Shown piece after piece: positions 1,995 to 27,962 of a stretch of 64,000 nucleotides of DNA (position 1 is the stretch's first letter; each line of letters opens with the position of its first letter). The stretch covers positions 992,001 through 1,056,000 of the forward strand of contig NW_026251388.1 of assembly GCF_025118155.1 (NCBI RefSeq), written 5' to 3'. The notes below the pieces were generated by a model. It was not told the DNA's origin and did no database searches. It saw nothing but the letters and a program-made list of their open reading frames with translations. The translations under genes and the position numbers were made by a program. This DNA is from Cokeromyces recurvatus. Taxonomy: Eukaryota > Mucoromycota > Mucoromycetes > Mucorales > Mucoraceae.

Positions 1995-3695
1995 AATATA
2001 AAAATATAAATAATAAATAGCAATATGCTTAAGCATTAGAATGGCTCTTATTATATATATATGTAAATAATTTAGGAGGCCTTACTAAGAGCAGTAATAG
2101 TCATACAATCTTATCACATTATGAATTAGAAATAATAGGTCAGTTAAGATAATAAAATGTTATTCTATAGTTATAATTATCACGTCTAAAATTCTTTATG
2201 TGATCAATTCTCGATTGTTTTGCTTGCTTATTTATAAAGAATTGGGTCTTACATAAAAAGCATGTGTCTCTTAAAAAAAAAGCATCTAATAATGATTTCA
2301 GAAGGTCTACTATTATGTCTCATTTTGAAAGTTTGCAATGATCTCTAATAAAAATAAATCTGCCCAATAAACTTTTTGCAATCGTCTTGTTTTAGGCTAA
2401 AATCCTGTAAATAATGATCGACTGAGTCGATGGCCAGGTAAAGCTGTGCTCTGTTTAGCAATATACACGATAGATCACTCAACATTTTATTCATTTCTTT
2501 CTTATTATCTATGAATAAAAATGAAAAGCATACATCACACAAACCTCTAGTGTATCCATTCTACGAAAATAAAGTATAAGGGTGCTAACATCATACAACT
2601 TGTGTGGCAAATAGAATTGCCCCAACAAAGTAAAGGGGTAAAAGCTTATAAAATGAGGGCTTTATCACAAATAACCAACATTTGAAGATAGTAACAGCTG
2701 TCATGAATATTACAAGAAAAAATATAAGAATATTATTGGATGCTACATTTTAATAGTAAATACTTTTATAAGAAAAATAATTTTTATGTAGGTGATTGCG
2801 GGGATTCTTCAGATTAATTGCCGTAAGTTAAAATTTTGGAACTAATATATTCACAAACAAAACAATCAAAGTATCACAGTTAACATGTGTACTCCTTTGA
2901 CACGTCCGTATCTCATATCCACCTTCAAACAGTATATCACAAATAACATTGTCGTCAATAAAAATGCATGCGATTTTATTCGTGTTTCATTATATTCACC
3001 AAACACATATCAGCCTAACAGGGTTTTAAAATTGGTTCCTTAGTTTGACTACTATTTTGAATCTACTTCTCTAAAAAAGGCATCAGACAATGTTTTACTC
3101 CAATGGATAGCAATGCAGCATCAGTTATACAATTAAAGATATGCAGTTAAAAATTATATAGCTTGATTGAATTCTTGGACTGTTGTTAATTCCAGCATCA
3201 CGGGTGTTCACAGAATAGGCTACGTTTTCCACAGCGCAGTATTCAACCAGATTATGGCGAAATTTGTATTTTGGTAGTTTAGTTAGTTTAGTTAGTTGTT
3301 AAAGCCAAACTTTGAATATGGGTTGGACTTTTAATCTCGTAAATGATTGGCAGGGATAAGTAACTTGTATATCACTTGATGTTGGAAATCTATACCAGTA
3401 TTTAAATCAACAATTGTAGGAAAGTTTTCAATTTAGCGTTTTTACTTCTTAAACAACTAAAATGTCTCTGTATTCGCTTGGCTTGTCTTTGATGTCATTA
3501 TAACCAATGTTTTGGTTCATATGGGATATCTTTTATGTTCTTCCATGTCTTTCATCAGCCCACACAGCTTCACTCAAAGAACTACAGATGGATAATATTC
3601 ACTGTTAGCTAATAATTGTTGTCTTTGTTGCTGCAAATACAAATACATATTTACAGCTTCTTTACGTATGTTAGGTTCATGATGTACTTTAATTT
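1995..3695. other. Gene-free stretch with decayed coding pieces
   Basis: AT-rich sequence upstream of the inverted-repeat element. Two minus-strand stretches are open longer than expected for this composition: 2345-2542 and roughly 3100-3260. The second contains YKFRHNLVEYCAVENVAYSV. I recognise neither. They may be remnants of one dead gene or transposon. No intact gene is seen. Confidence 0.4.
2345..3260 (-). pseudogene. Possible decayed coding sequence
   Basis: Two separated minus-strand open stretches. One spans 2345-2542 (65 codons; includes QLYLAIDSVDHYLQDFSLK). The other, at about 3100-3260, has ordinary amino-acid composition. They are in different frames with stops between them and have no splice sites I can join with confidence. 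They may come from a dead gene beside the inverted-repeat element. No family is recognised, and chance open frames cannot be ruled out. Confidence 0.2.
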
Positions 3696-4366
3696 CTAAA
3701 ATACTACTCGTGGTTGGGATCGAAGACTCAAAAGCGATCCCACCTGGGATATATTCGAGAAAAAAAAACAAAGTCAACCATAAGGTTAGACACTCTATAT
3801 TTAAAGGCAAAGAAGACTTGAAAGTTAGAATAAAAGAAGTCTGCGATAATACTCCAATTAGACATTTACAAGCATTTATTCAACATTCTGTCACAAACAC
3901 TTTGAGGATTGTTTAATTAAAGTCACTATTTAATTTTTGTTTTCAAAACGGTTAATTGAGGTAGTGAGAACTACAATTATAAAAGATATATATACACACA
4001 TATATATATATAAAATACATATAACACAGATTCAGATATTAAATAAAGAAATTGATATACACAAACTAAGGCTCAAGACTCAAAGTAGTAATACATACAA
4101 CTGTGCAATATTTTACAAAAGTTTTATTCAAATAAGTTTGTTATTCTAAATTTGAATAATGAAGATCTTCCAAGTAGATATTCATTGCGCAAGTATTGAC
4201 AGAAATGAGTTTATCTAAAAGACAATCAAATCTTCAAACGTAAACTAATATGTTCTTTCAGTTTCAACCAGGTGCACCACGTGGAGGTAGAACATAGGAA
4301 AGCACCCATTTTCGCAATCGCTTGTGATTACGGGGAATTTCAACCCTTAATAGCAGCAATGATCAT
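3696..4366 (+). repeat. Left inverted arm
   Basis: Reverse complement of about 7355-8021. It contains a perfect 8-bp stem (TGGGATCG at 3715-3722, CGATCCCA at 3735-3742) about 20 bp from its outer end, then AT-rich sequence with a TA microsatellite near 3997. Near the inner edge is GGTGCACCACGTGG. Identity falls away after about 4358-4366. The 70-codon open frame at 3937-4149 occurs in both arms and is not treated as a gene. Confidence 0.85.
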
Positions 4367-4485
4367 GTATGTATCGATTTGTATTGCTAGGCTAAATTAG
4401 AAAGTTTGTTAGTAAATGGATTTTTTTTTTGTATGCTCAACTTTCCTTTCCTATTATCCTAAATTATCAATATGCATGGTCAAAG

Positions 4486-4692
4486 CTGTTTATACCTGTC
4501 GCTACTACCATGAGGCAACGAGAGTCAACAATAAACTCTCACCACAACATACTAGGATTTGTCGGACCCAAGAACAGGTACCAAGCTCTCAAGATATAAA
4601 CTGGGGGTGGCGTAATACCATATCTTTTTAAATCCTTTAATATGATACCACCCTGTTCAACTTTTTATCGTAATAACCCCTCATTTTTCTTG
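4486..4692 (+). repeat. 207-bp repeat unit A, set inside a palindrome
   Basis: It begins CTGTTTATACCTGTCGC and ends TCATTTTTCTTG. It is repeated at 4710-4916 with two substitutions seen by eye. It is flanked by GGTCAAAG (4478-4485) on the left and CTTTGACC (4693-4700) on the right, a perfect inverted 8-mer. Inside is an imperfect hairpin from GGGTGG to CCACCC with CATAT/ATATG in the stem. Its nature is unknown; a miniature mobile unit is one possibility. Confidence 0.7.
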
Positions 4693-4709
4693 CTTTGACC
4701 CATCACTGA

Positions 4710-4916
4710 CTGTTTATACCTGTCGCTACTACCATGAGGCAACGAGAGTCAGCAATAAACTCTCACCACAACATGCTAGGATTTGTCGGACCCAAGAACA
4801 GGTACCAAGCTCTCAAGATATAAACTGGGGGTGGCGTAATACCATATCTTTTTAAATCCTTTAATATGATACCACCCTGTTCAACTTTTTATCGTAATAA
4901 CCCCTCATTTTTCTTG
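4710..4916 (+). repeat. 207-bp repeat unit B, set inside an imperfect palindrome
   Basis: Near-identical copy of 4486-4692. It is flanked by CATCACTGA (4701-4709) and TCAGCAATG (4917-4925), which are inverted matches at 7 of 9 positions. The right flank of unit A directly abuts the left flank of unit B, so the 17-bp gap is exactly the two half-palindromes. It lies about 600 bp upstream of the cargo gene start and could also contribute to its promoter. Confidence 0.7.
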
Positions 4917-5538
4917 TCAGCAATGTTTTGCATATAGTGAGATATCTAGATGACCAGAAATAAACTAGCAATGAGCACAAGCCTGTAAGAATTCGCATAA
5001 TATAATTAGAACTAGATGTGTCGCAAGTTGAAGTATAAATAGATTGTCATCAATAAAGTCTAATGTTTAAATTGAAATATTTTTGTTAAAAGTAAGGTTA
5101 TCATGAATTGCTGTGTGTAATAAAATTACTAAATTGTAGTAATTGCCTTGTTGAGTATCAATGTACACGCTATAAAGCTTGATAAAAAATGTTAATGAAA
5201 GTCGTTACAAATTGAAAGAAATGAGAACAAGTTGATAAAAATAAAGGAGGAAAATGTGACTTTTTTTTCAGCAGCAGCGTTCGGAAATCCTTTTAAGTAT
5301 AAATTAAACAGGTACAGGCATGCATTAGGGTGTTTATGGAATGGGTAATTTGTGATCCCTAAAGAGGACATTAGTAGCACACAGGAATAGTATAACCCAA
5401 GTTTGCTCTATCAGCATGATTATCAAATCAAATATTCTCCTATGTTATGTATAAATCTTGATTGCCCTGTAAAGTATTATCTTCTACTTTTTTAACTTAT
5501 TCTTTTTATAATATTTGATCGTTCTATATCGCTTTAAA

Positions 5539-7355
5539 ATGTCTTGTCCTCAAAAATACGTTGGTGCTAAAATAGCTGTTCCATCCTATGTCAAAAACAG
5601 CGAGTTTTTTGCTAATAATTGTGTTAACAAGTGGTCTTTCAAAGACTATTTAAACACTTGCACTGAGTTAGAAAATCCATCGCTAAAAGATATTAAAGCC
5701 AAAAGACAAGAGTATATCAATAGCTTGAAATCTCTTAAGAAAAATGTTAACTTGGATTCTGACATTCTATCTTTTATAAACGATTTGGCTAAAGCAAAGG
5801 TAACGTTGTTTCTGGAATAAAGAGTAAATAATAATATTCAACTCAATTCAATTATTTAGGATTCGGATTTGAATCTTATATCCATACTTCGTGAACTTGC
5901 CACAGCCCCTAAAATAAATATTATCAACTCAACAGTAACCAATTCTAATGTTATCGCCCTTAGAGGGAATGTCTATGAGAATAAGGTTGAAAAGAATAAT
6001 ATGATGATTATTAAAATTGAATCTTTTAGATATGTTATTAACTCATTATTAGGGAAAGCGAAAGTTAGACGAAGAACAAGATGGTAATATCAACACTAAT
6101 TCTCTAATGCAAACTAATTTTATAACTTTTCATATATGATTTTTAGAGAACTTCGTGTCTATACTTAAAAACAAGAAAAGCTATTGCTTTATAAAACCTA
6201 AGACACCAGAAATACACTATAATATCAATAGTCCTTCATTCACAGAACTTGAAAAAGAAATGATTGACGATGTTGTATTCATTAAGCTCGACGACACCTC
6301 CTTGTGTAATAATGAAGAAATTGCACAAGAATATAAGAATAACAAAACTGAGCAACAGCAAAACCATTTTATGGTGCAACTGCCAGTTGCAATGAAGTTT
6401 TTAGAGGGTGCATTAGATCAACAACTTAATCAACTACTCTTCTGGATGGGAAGCAATGGATTTAATTCCAGTCAGTCCGAAGACGAAAAAAAAGCAATAC
6501 TATTTATTCGTTTAGTATTGAATGATTTTTATGCTAATTGCATAAAACCTGTAGTCAATAATGTCTTGAATGAACGTACGCCCTTTGTCGAATATGTGGT
6601 ACCTGTATTCAAATATTTCAGTGCTGCATATAACGCTATTGCGTTTCAATGGTAAAACTAGTTAATCAATGTTAATTGCTAAATCGATTATTAATATAAA
6701 TTTAGGTGCGAGAAGGGTGTAGAGACAAATAAGTTTGTCTCCTTGTACCACAAAGAAACAAATGGAAGAAGACGTTTTGCTGACGGTATCGGGTATATCG
6801 TGGATGATCATTCTGAAGCGTTACTGATTGAGTCATCTGGGTAAATTATACAAATCCATAAACATAAAACTTTAATGAGCATTGACACATTTCACCATTT
6901 ATAGTGAAGAAGACACCAGCCATGCTAAAGAGGACACGTTAAAGCTGTTGGAATGCAGCATTCGTGCTTTGAAGATGGAGATGGAGAAGTTGAAATTTGC
7001 CTCTCTGAATACCTTCAAGGCGAGAAGGTTTTACACGATGTTGTACTCAAAAGATAAACTAACAATGTTGAGTACTTCTCTTGTTGATTCCAGTCGTTGG
7101 GGTTTCACCTTCGTCAGAGAGGCAACTTTTCCAAGAACATGGAATAAAAGACACGGATGGCTCTCAGTATTTGAATTAGTCTTGTGTCTGAATGTAAGTA
7201 TTTTTCTATAGTTGTATAATCTCGATTAAATCATATGTTTCGCTTATTAGGACAAGCTGAAGAAGCAGCAAGAAGTATCGCTTTTGCTGTTAAAAGAGCA
7301 TAATGGCTGGGTGAAGGTTGAAGATGGTGATGCTATTAATGATTTTAATAGATAA
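5539..7355 (+). CDS. Orphan cargo gene of the inverted-repeat element
   Basis: Seven exons: 5539-5799, 5860-5985, 6053-6083, 6147-6651, 6706-6840, 6905-7193 and 7251-7355, about 483 aa with no internal stop. The end of exon 2 is uncertain: donor GTTGAA at 5986 or GTCTAT at 5971, both in phase. An intron is needed there because the continuous frame stops at 6085-6087. The short third exon encodes a basic KRKLDEEQD segment that may be a nuclear signal. The middle part has the motif LPVAMKFLEGALDQQLNQLL. The C-terminal half reads RRRFADGIGYI, EALLIESSG, KEDTLKLLECSIRALK, RWGFTF. The spaced D, E-x-S and K resemble a degenerate PD-(D/E)XK nuclease core, but that is a guess. I have a general memory of similar uncharacterised proteins in Mucorales. 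The stop codon abuts the right arm. Confidence 0.75.
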
Positions 7356-8021
7356 TCATTTCTGCTGTTAAGGGTTGAAATTCCCCGTAATCACAAGCGA
7401 TTGCGAAAATGGGTGCTTTCCTATGTTCTACCTCCACGTGGTGCACCTGGTTGAAACTGAAAGAACATATTAGTTTACGTTTGAAGATTTGATTGTCTTT
7501 TAGATAAACTCATTTCTGTCAATACTTGCGCAATGAATATCTACTTGGAAGATCTTCATTATTCAAATTTAGAATAACAAACTTATTTGAATAAAACTTT
7601 TGTAAAATATTGCACAGTTGTATGTATTACTACTTTGAGTCTTGAGCCTTAGTTTGTGTATATCAATTTCTTTATTTAATATCTGAATCTGTGTTATATG
7701 TATTTTATATATATATATGTGTGTATATATATCTTTTATAATTGTAGTTCTCACTACCTCAATTAACCGTTTTGAAAACAAAAATTAAATAGTGACTTTA
7801 ATTAAACAATCCTCAAAGTGTTTGTGACAGAATGTTGAATAAATGCTTGTAAATGTCTAATTGGAGTATTATCGCAGACTTCTTTTATTCTAACTTTCAA
7901 GTCTTCTTTGCCTTTAAATATAGAGTGTCTAACCTTATGGTTGACTTTGTTTTTTTTCTCGAATATATCCCAGGTGGGATCGCTTTTGAGTCTTCGATCC
8001 CAACCACGAGTAGTATTTTAG
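7355..8021 (-). repeat. Right inverted arm
   Basis: Reverse complement of 3696-4366. The matching 8-bp stem lies at 7975-7982 and 7995-8002. The arm begins at the stop codon of the cargo gene and ends at the G of TAGTATTTTAG. Beyond 8021 the flank differs from the left flank apart from a few scattered bases. Confidence 0.85.
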
Positions 8022-8851
8022 GAATGGTGAATTGGTGCAGGAAGGACTGTTAGTATATAATATAGATTCAAGAGAGAGACTTTGATTTAAAAGAGTCTCT
8101 GTAAGCCTTTTGTTTTGTAAGGGAGAGATTCTGAGTAAAAATAAACCTATATATTAAAATCAGTTTATTCAATTGATATAAGCACAAAAAAAAAGGCAGA
8201 AGCTATCAAGGTTTGAGGATAAAATAGTTTGTAAAGTTTTAGTACAACTTAAAGCTGATAGAATATTATGGAGTTATTGGCATTCTCTTCAAAATTATAG
8301 AGATGAGAGAAGCCCTTCTTGATTATAAATGTGGAAAAATTCAGAATATGAGTATGGATGATGTTATAAAGTCTATTTTTTAGAGAATATTTTTCATAAT
8401 CGAAATGTCCTTTATATATGTATGTTATGAGATACTTTGGCAATACAATTTGAGTGCATAATATGTAATTATACATACTGTATGTCTATTGTTACAGTTT
8501 AGATTATAATTACATTTAAAAGAATTAATATAAAATATATGCTTCAGCGTGATTAATTTATCTATTTATATACGTGTAAAATAATGCTAGTTTAATAGAA
8601 ACTTTAAAGAAGTAATGTTCTTTTATGAGTAACAGGGAAATGTAAGATGACTATAAAAAATGAAAAGAAAAATGGATGTAAAATGGGCTAATACCATCAA
8701 GGCAATATGTATTAATACATATACACATTTTTCTTAAAGGTATATGTACATTTAAGGTTAGTAAATGAATTTTGAATTAAGTCACATATTTCTATTTTAT
8801 GTCAGGTAATAAAACAAAACAAATATACACTTTTCTATATATCTCAACAAG
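8022..8851. other. Intergenic stretch, nothing firm
   Basis: AT-rich sequence between the inverted-repeat element and MIC12. A 75-codon minus-strand open frame (8249-8476) is of low-complexity composition and not convincing. It presumably includes the MIC12 promoter. Confidence 0.4.
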
Positions 8852-16223: not shown

Positions 16224-18184
16224 TTTACCACGCACATGATTTGAACACTCACTGCTGTTATAATTTTTGTCAATTATCCTCATATATGTGATAAACGACT
16301 TTAATGACTTCACTCAATAAAGTAAAGGATTATCCATATCAATTACATCCATTATATGGATTTTAGTTTCGTGCTGATTGGAGACTAGCAATTAAGAACT
16401 TATCAAAAGCTTCAGCATCTGTCATATTAGAGATACCCAATTTTAATTTTTAGAGACTTATGTGTACATTAATCAGAAATGAATGATATTTGTTTTAACG
16501 TTAGAATTCGTTCTGAAAACATCAAAAATAAAAATTGTCTTTTTTTTTATGTTTTAAAATACGCCCATAACTTTCATTTTAACGATATATAGCCTTGATC
16601 CATAGGTTCTTTGTCTTGTATAACCAAGTTTTGGTATTAAATATTTATCGTAGAATTCACTAAGGTAGTAGCAGATTTACCTATTTGATCATTGTCACAA
16701 CTCCTAAAGGTTTTTTAGCTCTCTACATTTCTTACCCAACTACCAATGTTAAAATGATTCATATATCTTCTATCATTTTTATCAGCTTTGGCCACTAAGT
16801 CAATATCCTTCCTTATTAAAGTAATTATTTTTAGTGTTGGATAGCTTATGTGATGTATCAGCTATAACAAGTCTGCCATCAGTTTCATACTATTTTTTGC
16901 GCTATCGATCCTTCTTTGTGTCCTCATCATTAAAAATTTGCTATTTATTTTATATTATTGTTGTTGTTTTTTAATTTGTTAAATTTAATAATATCTTCTT
17001 TGTTTGTCAATTCTTTACATAATATTTCTTCTATTTCAAGTCTTTGAGTATAACCACACAAGTAGTTTATACTATTCCCTTACTGTTACATATTATAATT
17101 TACAAGTATTCTGTAACCGCAACAAGTATGACAGTGGTTCTAAATAAATAATGTGTAACTTTTTATAGCAATTGTACTACACAATACGTATTAACTTTAG
17201 AGCCCATCCTCCCTTTTTCATTTTTTTTTTTATTTTATATGAGAAAAAAAAATTATTGAAGAGGAAGTCCTTTATAGTGTAGAGGTGGATTAGATTCTGT
17301 TCTTGTTTGCTTCTACTACAGCCGTGTTACTCCCAGGAATTCTCTCAATGCTGCGGGCTTTCCTCTCTTGCATGGTAGGAAATTTCCCCGCGATTTAACA
17401 ACATCTTTTTATCGACCTCCATTGAAGGCCTGGTGTTGAACATTGGATCCTGGAAGGTAGCATGTTATCATTAAAGCTCAGAACTAACCCCGATTTTATT
17501 ATTAAATCACTCCCATCTACAGCTAACAAAGTTCATCTCTCCATGATCGCCGCTTGGCCAACAGAAAGGCGCTACCCTTTCCGATCAAGTTATTTTATTT
17601 ACCACAATTTTTTTGTTTATAAACCCAAGATTTTAGGTGTAGTTGCTGAGTTGTGGTATTCAAAAAAAATAAAATAAAAAAACATTTCCCTTTTATGCAT
17701 GCATATATTATAATCTCATATCATCAAACAATTTTTTTAATAAGAATTCAACGACCATCGAAATAAATAAGCATAGTCAGTGTCACTTACTCTTCCTTTA
17801 TTAATTTTAGATTTAAAGTACCTGGACAAATAGTATAAAGGAATGCGGCTTCAACTTATTTATGTATTATACTTTTTCATGTTACATGAACTTAAGGAAG
17901 TTGGTACACTCTACTGACAATACTAAATAGGATTATTCTGTCGTAACTAATACTTTTCTAATGCCTCTCTGACTATAGATATTCTTATATGAACACCTAA
18001 CTGTTAAAATCATAGATAAAACTGTAGTATTACTTGTAAAATATCAAATAATATAAAGACAAAAGAAAGTCAAGGAGAGCGAACAATAGTTCTAAAGTTA
18101 ATATTTTTTATTTAGCTATTTATAAGAATTGTTAAAGAAGTCTGACATAAGATGTGAATCAGAAAAGTGTTAGTTACTACCGAA
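16224..18184. other. Gene desert, part 1
   Basis: AT-rich with no intact gene. One island of higher GC, about 17265-17620, contains TAGTGTAGAGG, which fits the RNA polymerase III A-box pattern. I find no matching B-box, and no tRNA cloverleaf can be folded. A 71-codon open frame at 17462-17677 lies in it and is not recognised. Confidence 0.4.
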
Positions 18185-18304
18185 TAAGATATGTTGTAGA
18201 TAACGAAGTGTTGGAGGTTTTTAATATTATTTGATGGAGTGGATCAAGAGAGTTTTTCAGGGGAATCTAGATAGAATTCCTTGATCCGCTTGTTTAATCA
18301 AGGT
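18185..18304 (+). repeat. Short dispersed repeat, copy 1
   Basis: Shares AAGATATGTTGTAGATAACGA and GAATTCCTTGATCCGCTTGT with about 20509-20554; copy 2 has one T for C and an internal deletion of about 70 bp. Its inner end forms a 7-bp stem, CCTTGAT ... ATCAAGG. It may be a miniature element. Confidence 0.45.
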
Positions 18305-19766
18305 ACATAACATTATAAGTCAGTTCATGACAAAATGTATAAATGCAGATTATTTTTTATTTTTTTAAAAGAAAGAAACAAGGTGTACATTACCGCTGTT
18401 GAAAGGGTCTATTCTCTCAAAAGGATTACCCACGAACGATATTTGCTAGTTGGCTAACTTCATGCGTCTATTTCATACAATAATTAGTCATCTTATCAGC
18501 TTAAGTATGGCACGTTGTATTTAGATTGATTTCTGTCATATTGTTTGGATTAAACATACTTCATATGCTTGTCAGAAAAGAAAAGAAAACAAAAGAAAAA
18601 AGGTTCATGTAGTCATTACCAAAAAGTATATGTGTATATATGTACATGTAATGGGCTACTTATTATGTTTGCTTACTTTTTCTTAGAGAGTATAGCAGAA
18701 ATGTGAAACTCACTTAAATTCTTTGGCACGTCAAAGTTACGTTATTATTAGGTATATCAAATACATCTTCGTTAAAGTACTGTTGTTGTAGCGTTCTCTT
18801 CCCTACTTTCTTTTATGTACACTGTATTTCAGTAATGGTATTAAAGTCGTTTAACAATTTACTATGTAGATTCTTTTTTTTTTTATAATCCTAATGATGT
18901 TAATATACTCATACTTTTTGTTTTTCAGTAGAAAACTAGTGCAAAGTAATGTTCGTTATCATAATAAAGAAATAAAGAAAGAAAGAAAGAAAAAGGAGAT
19001 TAATAAGGGACATTAGAACATCATTTACCTTCGTTTGCTAATGACTGTCGTTGAGAAATAGGTTGCTCGAGAAAAGAATCAAAAGTTGTTTCTACATTAG
19101 AAATAGCTTGCTTAAATATCTACTCCCATTTTGAAGTAGTTTCACTAAAACCAAAGAAACTACTCATTATTAAATCATTTAAACGCTTTATATGAATGGG
19201 ATTTCAAAAAAAAAAAAAAAAAAAAGAAATATGTAATATAAGTTTTAGGAAAAGCGGAAATTAAGTCTCTTTTTCAATATCCTTAATATATTGTACTCAT
19301 CTTAGTTAATTTTTGATAATTTGATTGTAAAGGAAGAATAATAATCATGATAGTTTCTCTGATAAAATATTAGTCAATAGTTTACATAATCACTACTACA
19401 TTACATCTTATATCTCCTATATTATTTAAGTCAATTATTTTATAACTTCTCTACTTGTTTTTATACTTCTTAAAGTCAATTTGGAGCAAAAAAATATTTT
19501 ATTATACAAACAATAGTTAAAGAAGGCACAATATTATTAAAAGACGCGTAAAAAAAAAGATATATTTATTTATTGTATTTTATTTTCATTTTTATTTCAT
19601 ATATAAAAAAGTGAATCCCCAATTCGTCAACAGTAAAAATAATATTTACTGCAGTCCAAAGGTGGCCGCGTGGAGGCTAGGATTCTTTGCACCTTCTTTG
19701 TTCTTGTATTTTTTATTTTTACTAGGAGGTTAGAAAAAACCCACAGCTAGCACAATATGTAACGCC
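18305..19766. other. Gene desert, part 2
   Basis: AT-rich sequence with short A- and T-runs and a GAAA microsatellite near 18970. A higher-GC island begins at about 19650 (GTGGCCGCGTGGAGGC). No gene is seen. Confidence 0.4.
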
Positions 19767-19841
19767 CTCTGAATCAACAAGATACCCTACAATGTCCTCC
19801 TAATTCAAGGAGGGCAAGATAGGGTGTCTTCCTCATCAGAG
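19767..19841 (+). ncRNA. Long imperfect hairpin, candidate structured RNA
   Basis: Three stacked helices can be paired: CTCTGA (19767-19772) with TCAGAG (19836-19841); GATACCCTA (19781-19789) with TAGGGTGTC (19820-19828, one G-T); CCTCCT (19796-19801) with AGGAGG (19808-19813) around a 6-nt loop. The segment lies in an island of higher GC than the surrounding desert. It could be a structured transcript, a small-RNA precursor or the end of a dead foldback element. No known RNA family is recognised. Confidence 0.35.
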
Positions 19842-22461
19842 CCGGTACATAAGTGGTAACCATGAGAAAAAGAATTTCCTCCTAGGGCAGGGAAGAAGAA
19901 GAAGAATAAAATAGTATTATTTAATGACTTACCTATAGAAGAAATAGTAATAATAAAGAAGATAAAGAAGAAAAAATAACTTTGAATATCTACTTTTTTA
20001 TAAGAATAAGGAGGTCGTTGTTGTAAATTACAGTCACAATCATATGAAATCGATAAGAATATGTGTTACCCCACATTTAATACACACATACACACAGTTA
20101 CATTATTTAATTTTCTTCCTTTCTTATAAAAAGTAACAATGTGTAAAATAGTAAAATGTTGTCAATTTTGTATCTTTTTATGGCTATATGAAATGTGTTT
20201 ATGTTAAAGAAAAGTAAAGTAAATAAAATAAATATCTTTTCTTTTTCACTTTTTTGTTTATATTCTCATCAACTTTCTTTTCCTATTTAGGCAACTAATA
20301 TGCATCTCATTTGTACAATATACAACTATTTCTAACAAGGGGTATTTGATAAGTCTAGTCTCCCTTATGTCGTACTTAAAATCATTCTTTTGCCCAAATG
20401 ATGTTGTAAAGATTAACAATTTTAGCTTCTTTGATGTATGCTATGAAAACCAGTTTAAGTATCTTTGACTTGCATTCACAGTAATATTTTCCACCCCCTT
20501 TTAAATACTAAGATATGTTATAGATAATGAATTCTTTGATCCGCTTGTTTAATCAGTTCATAACATCAAGTCTTGAAAAAGCCCATCAATTAGACAAGCA
20601 AATAATGTGGTGTAGTTAGGTGTTTGGGAGCATAATCCTTCAGCTATTCACTTTTATACACGTCAAGGTTTCTATAAAGTGGGAAGCCAGACATTCAAAT
20701 TAGGTTCACAAAAAGATACAGATTATATCATTATTTATTTTATTTAACGTACATTAAAATGAATTGGTTCTATTCCAATGATTATAATGGCTTTAAAAGA
20801 ATCTTATAAAAATTAAAAGAGAGATAAGAAGAATGATAGAGAACATGTTACAATATACCAAATATAAAGGAGGAAATGCATTTCTTTTTTCAAATCTCTA
20901 CTGTTGCTACATTTCAGCTCAGGAACAGTATAATCATCTCTTTTTTGTAACAAAGATATCAATTAGAATAGTTTGTTCTGATGATGCCTATTTTTTCCTT
21001 AAAAAAATAATAATAATCCATAGCAATAATGTTCATATTACTGCTGTCTTCCCTGTATAATTTACAGCTTTTGAAATATTATCCTTAACCTCTTTTAGCC
21101 TTCAGGTTTGTAGGCATTGACAAGTATTTGATAATATACTACACGGAACAAGGGATTTATTAGGTAATTCATTTCAACTTTTTTTTTTTTTTTTTTGATG
21201 AGGCAAAATATTAACTTTAGATGTAAAATTGGATAAAGGAAGAGCTAAATTATTCATTTTGATTATACAACATCTAGATAATGTTTCAGTAAAATAAAGT
21301 AAAAGGAAAAAATATTGAATATTCTTAGAAAAGAAATATCCTTGCATTTATTACTGTTACAGTGACAGAATTGTTATATTTGTCAATATCTTCTTTTTTT
21401 GAAGTAATCAGGAACACTCTTCTTTACACTAGTTTATAGAGAGATATTCATTGTTATCACAATATTCTTGGTAGATCTTTTTAAGTCTTTATTCTTAAGT
21501 AAGCCATAACATAATGTATATTATTAGCTAGAGAAGCTTGCTAATCAATTAAATGAATCTGTACATTACGTTTACTTGTGATTATATCCTGAGAGGTTGA
21601 TTATGATCAAACACAGCAACTATAGATTTGTATCTGTATGTGCTTAAAATAAGGCTTTTTAGACACTCTATTATCTTTTTATGTCTTGAGGACCATAATG
21701 ATACCAAGGTACATAGTACACATTCATGTGTAAGAATTTATTTCTAATATATAATCTAACTATAATAGTGTCAGGTAATAATAGCAAATTTGTATTTACT
21801 ACTGTTCCTCCTGTACCTACTACCGTTGCTTGGTAGAATATAGTCATAAAACATCATTACTCATGCTGCTGCTGCTGCTTGAAAAAAGAAAAAAAAAAGG
21901 AGTCGCTGGTGTAGTACAAAAAATAAGAATAAATAAAAAAATTAAGGGTTCATTTGATTTGGTGGGGAACCCTTGAAGTGATTCGATTCCACAGCCTAGG
22001 CTTGGGCTAAATATGCTGCGAATTCTAGTCACTCTCCAAACACCCGTGTTACTTTCATCAGAAATAGAGGATACACATAGGGCTATGTTTACTGTAAACA
22101 CACCACTTATACCACCACCGCCATTTATACCTACAACTACAATACTACTACCAACACATCCTTACAAATGTTAATAATCACTACACAATACCAGTGTTAC
22201 TTACTACCACTACTACTACTACTACTACCACTACTACTACTTTGATTTGCCTTCATTTTTTTTGTAATCCTTATCATTGGATTATGGAACAGTCTATAAT
22301 ATACATGTATGAACAGGAAAAAAAAAAAAAAAAACTACTTCTTTTATTATTAACACTTACTATTATTATTATTATTATAAATAAGCTATATTGGAACATC
22401 AAATGATATACTTTGCTATATCGGTTGGGTTATAGAATATATAAAACTTTTTATGATATTT
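19842..22461. other. Gene desert, part 3
   Basis: AT-rich. It holds the second copy of the short repeat (about 20509-20554), CTA/TAC-type microsatellites near 22200-22240 and a higher-GC island at about 21890-22110. That island has an 85-codon minus-strand frame (21844-22101, including SIFSPSLGCGIESLQG) and, on the plus strand, GATTCGATTCC, one mismatch from an RNA polymerase III B-box. No gene can be supported. Confidence 0.4.
20509..20554 (+). repeat. Short dispersed repeat, copy 2
   Basis: Matches 18185-18304 at both ends (AAGATATGTTATAGATAATGA and GATCCGCTTGTTTAATCA) but lacks the middle of copy 1. Confidence 0.4.
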
Positions 22462-25094: not shown

Positions 25095-25428
25095 ATTTTA
25101 TGAGTATAACTTTGCTTACTAAATTTTTTTATTTTTGTGTGTCAGTTTTCCCGGTTTTGCATAGTAAGCTTTTTATTTGTGTATAAATTGGGGTAATGAA
25201 AAAAAAAAATCTTTCTGAAAATATCACAGCTAAAGATTGTTAAGTGATTTGCGTTTAAAATTTAAGATTTTATGAAATAGCCAATAAAAAAAAAAGAGAA
25301 ATCCTGAAGTCTAATAAAGTTTTTGTTGGTTGAATGATAAAAGTTTATGGGTGATCAGTAAAATATTTTTATCATCAATAAAAAAAAAGAGATACCGTGC
25401 TTTACGATATTCAGTAAGCTAGTGAGAG
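25095..25428 (+). repeat. Left arm of the second inverted-repeat element
   Basis: Contains AACTTTGCTTACT near the outer end, GTGTGTCAGTTTTCCCGGTT, then an A/T-rich body and TACCGTGCTTTACGATATTC at the inner end. Its reverse complement lies at 27637-27962. Confidence 0.75.
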
Positions 25429-25449
25429 TTAGAAAGCATGCTTATAACA

Positions 25450-27620: not shown

Positions 27621-27636
27621 AACGAATAAAATCTCA

Positions 27637-27962
27637 CTAACTTACTGAATATCGTAAAGCACGGTATCTCTTTTTTTTTATTGATGATAAAAATATTTTA
27701 CTGATCACCCATAAACTTTTATCATTCAACCAACAAAAACTTTATTAGACTTCAGGATTTCTCTTTTTTTTTTTATTGGCTATTTCATAAAATCTTAAAT
27801 TTTAAACGCAAATCACTTAACAATCTTTAGCTGTGATATTTTCAGAAAGATTTTTTTTCATTACCCCAATTTATACGCAAATAAAAAGCTTACTATGCAA
27901 AACCGGAAAAACTGACACACAAAAATAAAAAGAGTCAGTAAGCAAAGTTACAAAATTAAAAT
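27637..27962 (-). repeat. Right arm of the second inverted-repeat element
   Basis: Reverse complement of 25095-25428 with a few substitutions and A-run length differences. Confidence 0.75.

What the first reader, a model, noticed from the sequence alone, without database searches (positions are those of the whole stretch)
3696..8021. Long-arm inverted-repeat element carrying a single intact orphan gene and no transposase
Two arms of about 667 bp in reverse orientation are near identical, while the gene between them is intact across seven exons and its stop codon touches the right arm. High arm identity suggests recent movement, recent gene conversion, or selection to keep a foldback structure. 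No known transposase motif is present. A gene enclosed between large arms could be a cargo-bearing non-autonomous transposon, an element whose cargo is itself the recombinase, or a structure that makes double-stranded RNA.
Basis: partly seen in the sequence, partly recalled or inferred. Interest (0 to 1): 0.75.

Follow-up and report, generated by a model that had tools for sequence, protein, structure and literature searches.

The report
Ribozyme-tipped inverted repeats around nuclease gene
In a mould's genome, two identical mirror-image pieces of transposon debris, each probably carrying a self-cutting RNA, flank an intact gene for an undescribed DNA-cutting-enzyme-like protein; it is not the simple jumping-gene package it first seemed.

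Summary
The inverted repeat is real: 3696-4350 and 7368-8021 are identical but for one A and enclose an intact seven-exon gene. The genome matches Cokeromyces recurvatus, Mucorales.

'Orphan cargo, no transposase' does not hold. The gene belongs to a multicopy Mucorales family. A model of a relative (pLDDT 79.7) matches PD-(D/E)XK endonucleases; E, D, E and K are nearly invariant, but the canonical lysine position is changed.

Each arm encodes a 41-residue transposase end. Its inner end holds a ~100-bp motif, found at three other loci, with covarying stems and the layout of an HDV-like ribozyme, below curated score cut-offs. The right copy lies just behind the gene's stop, on its strand.

Arm ends are not matching TIRs; the full arm occurs only here. 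Near-identical arms of other sequence occur at 5 of 12 family loci fetched, this one included. I favour repeated inverted duplication in transposon-rich DNA. No background rate could be measured; self-cleavage and nuclease activity are untested.

The parts
3696..4350 (+). left arm, identical core (655 bp; one A more than the right arm)
7368..8021 (-). right arm, identical core (654 bp), inverted copy of the left arm
3773..3895 (+). C-terminal 41-residue piece of a DDE_3 (IS630/Tc1-mariner-type) transposase in the left arm
   Evidence: (E 7e-7)
7823..7945 (-). the same transposase piece in the right arm
   Evidence: (E 5e-7)
7372..7469 (+). conserved structured motif in the right arm (also at C6:502522, C56:294711, C56:733347): two hairpins, then the ribozyme-like core; follows the gene's stop on the gene's strand
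7411..7469 (+). HDV-like ribozyme candidate (P1 begins with G.U; predicted cut 7410/7411)
4249..4307 (-). HDV-like ribozyme candidate in the left arm (predicted cut 4308/4307), pointing away from the gene
5539..7355 (+). gene, 7 exons, 483 aa, family with predicted PD-(D/E)XK fold; intact
4351..7367 (.). spacer; its upstream part 4351-5538 is single copy; spacer ends form a 22-bp imperfect inverted repeat (18 of 22)
4486..4916 (.). tandem repeat, two copies of 207 bp at 224-bp spacing, 99% identical, in the left part of the spacer

Best explanation
The structure is a locus-specific inverted duplication of transposon debris on either side of a resident nuclease-fold gene. Shown: each arm runs from a transposase 3' piece (outer side) to a conserved structured motif ending at TTAA (inner side); the gene fills the right half of the spacer and its stop lies 12 nt from the identical arm; the family occurs at many loci, often beside such transposases. 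Inferred: the second arm arose when a break in or near the element was repaired by copying the existing arm in reverse, recently or with later gene conversion keeping the arms identical. Inferred: the motif is an HDV-like self-cleaving ribozyme. The two copies face outward, so a transcript leaving the spacer on either strand would be cut just outside it. The gene's own mRNA would be cut 55 nt after its stop, in its 3' UTR, lowering its expression or setting its 3' end. Inferred: the protein binds and nicks or cuts DNA and is tied to mobile elements, since some relatives carry recombinase-type or (below cut-off) zinc-finger domains.
Against: Both arms stop at the same outer point, which is easier to explain if the arm is a mobile unit with two ends. 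Ribozyme: scores are below Rfam's gathering thresholds (10.5-17 bits against 37-44); at 3 of 4 loci the best match is a viral-pseudoknot model, not an HDV one; wider scans listed no HDV-like model; for the ribozyme helices alone 3 of 17 pairs change on both sides and 58 of 500 shuffles reach that; P1 and P3 never vary; P4 is not evident; only four different sequences exist; single-sequence folding is not unusual (z -0.8 to 0.4), and the reverse strand of the window copy folds slightly better (z -1.7). Protein: Foldseek found no PDB match at E 0.001 or better; the canonical E-x-K lysine is missing; the model is of a relative, not of the window's protein.
Confidence: 0.55

Rival explanations
1. 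A composite or long-TIR transposon: the two 655-bp arms are the ends of one mobile unit (TA at both outer ends), mobilised by a Tc1/mariner-type transposase elsewhere in the genome, with the nuclease-fold gene as cargo.
For: Sharp ends at the same point in both arms and full identity; a TA just inside each outer end; 151 related transposase matches in this genome; transposase piece in the arms.
Against: One full-length pair; outer and inner ends of an arm share no terminal repeat; TA is not informative in DNA of about 30% GC; at C12:890k and C23:197k inverted pairs flank the transposase alone and exclude the gene.
Confidence: 0.2
2. The arms are independent insertions, in opposite orientation, of one short ribozyme-bearing element on either side of the gene (like paired insertion sequences).
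For: Both arms end at TTAA on the inner side next to the conserved motif; the motif recurs at three other loci in front of mostly unrelated downstream sequence.
Against: No third full copy was found in the genome; C6 shares about 280 bp, and the two C56 loci about 100 bp.
Confidence: 0.12
3. The arms are selected or retained as a hairpin source of double-stranded RNA that silences the family and its transposons.
For: At 4 of the 5 family loci with strong arms, the arms contain gene or transposase pieces.
Against: No small-RNA data; outward-facing ribozymes would cut read-through transcripts; no family coding piece was detected in the window's arms.
Confidence: 0.08
4. Assembly artefact.
For: This assembly contains a stretch present twice (C18 and C27 are 100% identical over the 17 kb compared).
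Against: Both arms sit on a 1.5-Mb contig and differ in one A-run; the spacer's upstream part is single copy.
Confidence: 0.05

Closest known systems
Galileo / Foldback-like elements (P superfamily, Drosophila)
   Same: Long inverted arms that have taken up the end of the transposase frame; defective copies there are explained by aborted, slipped or template-switched gap repair (PMC4168063, passages seen).
   Different: Galileo is dispersed in many copies; here one full pair was found, arms differ between loci, the transposase is DDE_3-type, and an intact unrelated gene lies inside.
HDV-like ribozymes of retrotransposons (R2, L1Tc/SIDER, drz-agam-1)
   Same: P1 starting with G.U, P2, 3-bp P3, conserved L3, conserved C before the P2 3' strand; P4 can be absent, as in silkmoth R2 (PMC3774820, passages seen).
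   Different: No reverse transcriptase frame was noticed by eye next to it at the three other loci (not searched by model); an extra conserved ~40-nt two-hairpin stretch lies 5' of the predicted cut; here one copy lies in a gene's 3' UTR.
PD-(D/E)XK nucleases (type II/IIG restriction enzymes such as DrdV, BpuSI)
   Same: Predicted alpha-beta-beta-beta-alpha-beta core with conserved acidic residues on the second and third strands.
   Different: Serine or cysteine replaces the usual E-x-K lysine; an invariant lysine sits 16 residues on, in the next helix; no PDB sequence match and no Pfam match over a cut-off for the window protein.
Tc1/mariner-type transposons of this genome
   Same: The arms carry a piece of such a transposase.
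   Different: No intact transposase and no matching TIRs bound the structure.

Membership tests
HDV-like ribozyme | P1 beginning with a G.U pair, crossing P2 as a pseudoknot | tested here: met
   6 P1 pairs in 4 of 4 sequences, first pair G.U; invariant, so without covariation
HDV-like ribozyme | P2 helix supported by compensatory change | tested here: met
   3 of 8 P2 pairs changed on both sides, 93.8% of cells paired, 1 pair broken in 2 of 4; over all 17 ribozyme pairs 58 of 500 shuffles reach 3
HDV-like ribozyme | 3-bp P3 with conserved L3, and invariant C (catalytic by analogy) before the P2 3' strand | tested here: met
   ACC/GGU, UCCACGN, ACURA; but the Rfam match at C56_729 aligns a later CUAA
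HDV-like ribozyme | P4 helix (absent in some known members) | tested here: inconclusive
   too few nucleotides for a clear P4 in A4; absent also in silkmoth R2
HDV-like ribozyme | Rfam family model at gathering score | tested here: not met
   10.5-17 bits against 37-44; so not a member of RF01787 or RF02682 as curated
HDV-like ribozyme | self-cleavage | not testable with these tools
   needs in vitro transcription
PD-(D/E)XK fold | core fold | tested here: met
PD-(D/E)XK fold | D and E/D on neighbouring strands | tested here: met
   D226 28 of 28, E242 28 of 28 rows with a letter (30 rows)
PD-(D/E)XK fold | lysine at the E-x-K position | tested here: not met
   S or C there in the rows seen; K258, 28 of 28, lies in the next helix
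Tc1/mariner transposon | matching terminal inverted repeats at element ends with TA duplication | tested here: not met
   outer and inner arm ends do not match; TA present but uninformative
Tc1/mariner transposon | intact transposase | tested here: not met
   41 residues detected in each arm
Foldback/Galileo-like element | several dispersed copies with the same long arms | tested here: not met
   one full pair, five partial matches

The most novel reading that the evidence does not exclude
A new kind of ribozyme-bounded element in Mucorales: the unit between two outward-facing HDV-like ribozymes carries its own PD-(D/E)XK-fold protein, and ribozyme cutting on both strands defines the RNA of the unit (for regulation or for movement), with inverted arms kept identical by conversion.
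Probability: 0.12. Interest if true: 0.9.

Novelty: new variant of a known kind. Interest (0 to 1): 0.6.

Why it matters
It puts a testable, probably self-cutting RNA directly behind a gene of a fungal nuclease-fold family for which Pfam gave no match over its cut-off, inside inverted arms made of transposon debris. If the RNA cuts, it is a candidate HDV-like ribozyme controlling a gene's 3' end in Mucorales. If the protein cuts DNA, a whole family across Mucorales gets a function. The recurring locus-specific arms at family members would also be a good system for asking how identical inverted repeats arise and persist.

Tried and rejected
Arms as TIRs of a two-gene transposon: local inverted-repeat searches around transposase plus gene found nothing above shuffles at the six loci tried (C12:890k, C12:812k, C23:15k, C23:201k, C64, C4). 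Inverted pairs around the transposase alone were clear at C12:890k and C23:197k, slightly above shuffles in AT-rich sequence at C23:13.5k (18.5 against 15.0), and not found at C64, C12:812k, C4 and C16. At C18 a separate imperfect pair (309006-309123 / 315453-315546) encloses gene and arms; not followed.

Family function by sequence: the only Pfam match of the window protein is below cut-off (SRP1_TIP1, E 0.06), taken as chance, as are two further weak ones in relatives. No PDB sequence match. First model too weak (pLDDT 55.7). Foldseek PDB and viral searches with the better model gave nothing at E 0.001 or better. Absence of other folds from the VIA list is not evidence.

The motif as a tRNA: ARAGORN found none in the window. 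Tobamovirus-type pseudoknot models score weakly on it and rank first at 3 of 4 loci (also 92), and a twister model third at one; I took these short or weak matches as chance. miRNA matches elsewhere in the fetched loci were ignored.

C16: an N-terminal frame that I first took for a transposase was not supported, so it is not among the 7 of 12. C27 is a 100% copy of C18 over the 17 kb compared and is counted once. Weaker arms beside a family gene at C56:270-273k (85-88%) and at C56:729-735k, which is not a family locus (90%), are not counted among the 5.

Literature: no paper with restriction endonuclease-like + Mucorales + transposable. For HDV-like ribozyme + fungi + retrotransposon, 3 were listed. 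In one search the 10 listed of 4,655 do not contain the two ribozyme terms. I therefore do not claim that it is unpublished.
Full report
Observation. The window holds an inverted repeat with arms 3692-4370 and 7348-8025. The core 3696-4350 is identical to 7368-8021 except for one A (654 identities, no mismatch, one gap). Searching the whole genome (28.05 Mb, 64 contigs) with the left arm gives both arms at full length and five partial matches: C6 (282 query positions, 89%), two on C56 (about 100 positions, 83% and 79%) and two short ones on C63 and C8. The spacer's upstream part, 4351-5538, is single copy. The gene has seven exons and 483 residues. The closest database protein is annotated in Cokeromyces recurvatus on a contig of 1,517,640 bases, the length of C12, which carries the window; it is this same gene with one exon junction predicted differently.

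The gene is not an orphan. A protein search gave 13 proteins at E 1 or better, the gene itself and 12 relatives; a profile search gave 27, query members included. 23 of those 27 show an organism, each of a genus that I know as Mucorales (Rhizopus, Mucor, Parasitella, Thamnidium, Helicostylum, Apophysomyces, Fennellomyces, Phycomyces, Cokeromyces); four show none. In this genome, three protein queries give 16 distinct places once C27 is merged with C18, plus two weak ones (C7, C1); some are broken. A tree of 21 proteins puts five Cokeromyces copies into several lineages shared with other genera (four label changes; 171 of 500 shuffles as low, so not clustered). The window and C12:890k copies have introns; C18, C64 and C16 copies are single open frames.

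What the arms are. Frames that I picked by eye next to family genes match each other; those of C12:890k, C12:812k and C23:197k also match DDE_3 (PF13358), one over its cut-off. With these as queries, both window arms encode the same 41 C-terminal residues (E 5e-7 and 7e-7). Of 12 fetched family loci, 7 have such pieces within 3 kb, each matching a query from another locus: the window, C12:890k, C12:812k, C23:15k, C23:201k, C4 and C64; not C16, C18, C22, C56:274k and C6:296k. The relative orientation of transposase and gene differs between loci. The transposase is common: 151 matches from 348 candidates, 149 of them scored, in 28 Mb, so by my own rough reckoning from 348 about one chance neighbour is expected among 12 loci. 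At C12:890k and C23:197k inverted pairs flank the transposase alone and the gene lies outside.

Inverted arms at family loci. Self-comparison gave strong arms at the window (679 bp with margins, 99.1%), C18 (440 bp, 98.4%), C22 (308 bp, 97.7%), C23:15k (1317 bp, 99.2%, 9.9 kb apart) and C64 (798 bp, 99.5%): 5 of 12. Their sequences and ends differ. They contain the gene's 3' end in C18, its 5' end and transposase in C64, its middle in C23 and a transposase piece in the window; no piece was detected in those of C22. At C64 one end of the arm lies in the broken transposase stretch and the other inside the gene's frame, which points to inverted duplication. Weaker pairs (85-88%) lie beside the C56:274k copy. 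The window was chosen for its arms, so the unbiased count is 4 of 11. In the fetched DNA, strong arm pairs without a family gene were the window's second pair (25.1-27.96 kb) and a 232-bp perfect pair around a transposase at C23:1800-3489.

The structured motif. At the inner end of each arm, and at C6:502522, C56:294711 and C56:733347, lies a motif that begins near TA with GGGTTGAAATTCC. Over four sequences it is 80% identical, with several stretches invariant and stems changing in pairs. For three helices named after inspection, 7 of 18 pairs have changes on both sides and 95.8% of cells pair; no shuffle of 500 reaches this, and partners slid by 1-3 columns give 0-2 such pairs; the number of further pair types is not raised (9 against 9.4). 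Since I named the helices from these sequences, the slid control is partly favourable. Some pairs are G.U when read in the stated direction and would be A.C on the other strand. The 3' part has the order P1-P2-P3-P1'-P2' of HDV-like ribozymes (order recalled), with an invariant C before the P2 3' strand. Counted alone, these helices pair in 97.1% of cells, but only 3 of 17 pairs change on both sides and 58 of 500 shuffles reach that. In small-stretch scans, Rfam's HDV-F-prausnitzii was among the two or three weak matches of 4227 models at 4 of 4 loci and drz-agam-1 at 3 of 4; one equal stretch of the same arm gave neither. All scores are below curated thresholds, a viral-pseudoknot model ranks first at 3 of 4 loci, and wider scans (window 3600-8100; 27 kb of three loci) listed no HDV-like model. 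Single-sequence folding energy is not unusual. A covariance model made from these four sequences found the five known copies in 235 kb searched (21 sources), plus one match at E 0.9. A silkmoth R2 study reports absent P4 and the need for the C (PMC3774820, passages seen). Upstream of the motif at C6 and both C56 places lies another conserved block, repeated in tandem at two of them. Downstream, among the six pairs compared, only C6 and the window are alike (about 200 bp).

Reading. The right-arm ribozyme would cut the gene's mRNA 55 nt after the stop; the left one faces the other way. Two AATAAA signals lie further on at 7590 and 7838, so an uncut transcript could be polyadenylated in the arm. 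The most economical history is an inverted duplication of an already broken element next to the gene, recent or kept identical by conversion. It leaves unexplained why both arms stop at the same outer point and why the spacer ends form a 22-bp imperfect inverted repeat (score 12 against a shuffled maximum of 8.5 in 30).

Rating. HDV-like ribozymes, PD-(D/E)XK proteins and long-armed elements are all known kinds; the combination and the Mucorales gene family are not known to me. Hence new variant of a known kind, interest 0.6.

Noticed in passing
window 25107-25430 and 27629-27950: Second near-identical inverted repeat (about 324 bp, 97%), with no further match in the genome, 2.2 kb spacer with a decayed piece of the same transposase type on the - strand (E 4e-5) and no family gene detected.
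   Followed up: partly
L047 (C6:502.1-502.5k), L045 (C56:294.7-295.0k), L048 (C56:733.2k): A conserved block just upstream of the ribozyme-like motif, repeated in tandem at two of the three places; possibly part of a longer structured RNA.
   Followed up: partly
C18 and C27 (L030-L033): 17 kb compared are 100% identical in reverse orientation, and other matches keep nearly the same offset: a duplicated contig in the assembly or a very recent duplication.
   Followed up: no
L037 C23:1800-3489: A transposase-like frame (judged by eye) between perfect 232-bp inverted repeats, probably a recently moved Tc1-type element.
   Followed up: no
window 18048-20553: About 2.5 kb repeat, 89% identical to C56:295490-298024 and 84-91% to C64:205378-206998, next to C64's right arm; no frame of 110 residues or more seen there.
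   Followed up: no
L049 C23:196001-203490: 99% direct repeat of 717 bp, 6.8 kb apart start to start, around a transposase, a frame that looks like a histidinol dehydrogenase end (recognised by eye) and a family gene.
   Followed up: no
P0013 (Rhizopus delemar), P0029 (Mucor saturninus): Gene models joining the nuclease-fold domain to a tyrosine-recombinase-type or an NDC10-type domain.
   Followed up: partly
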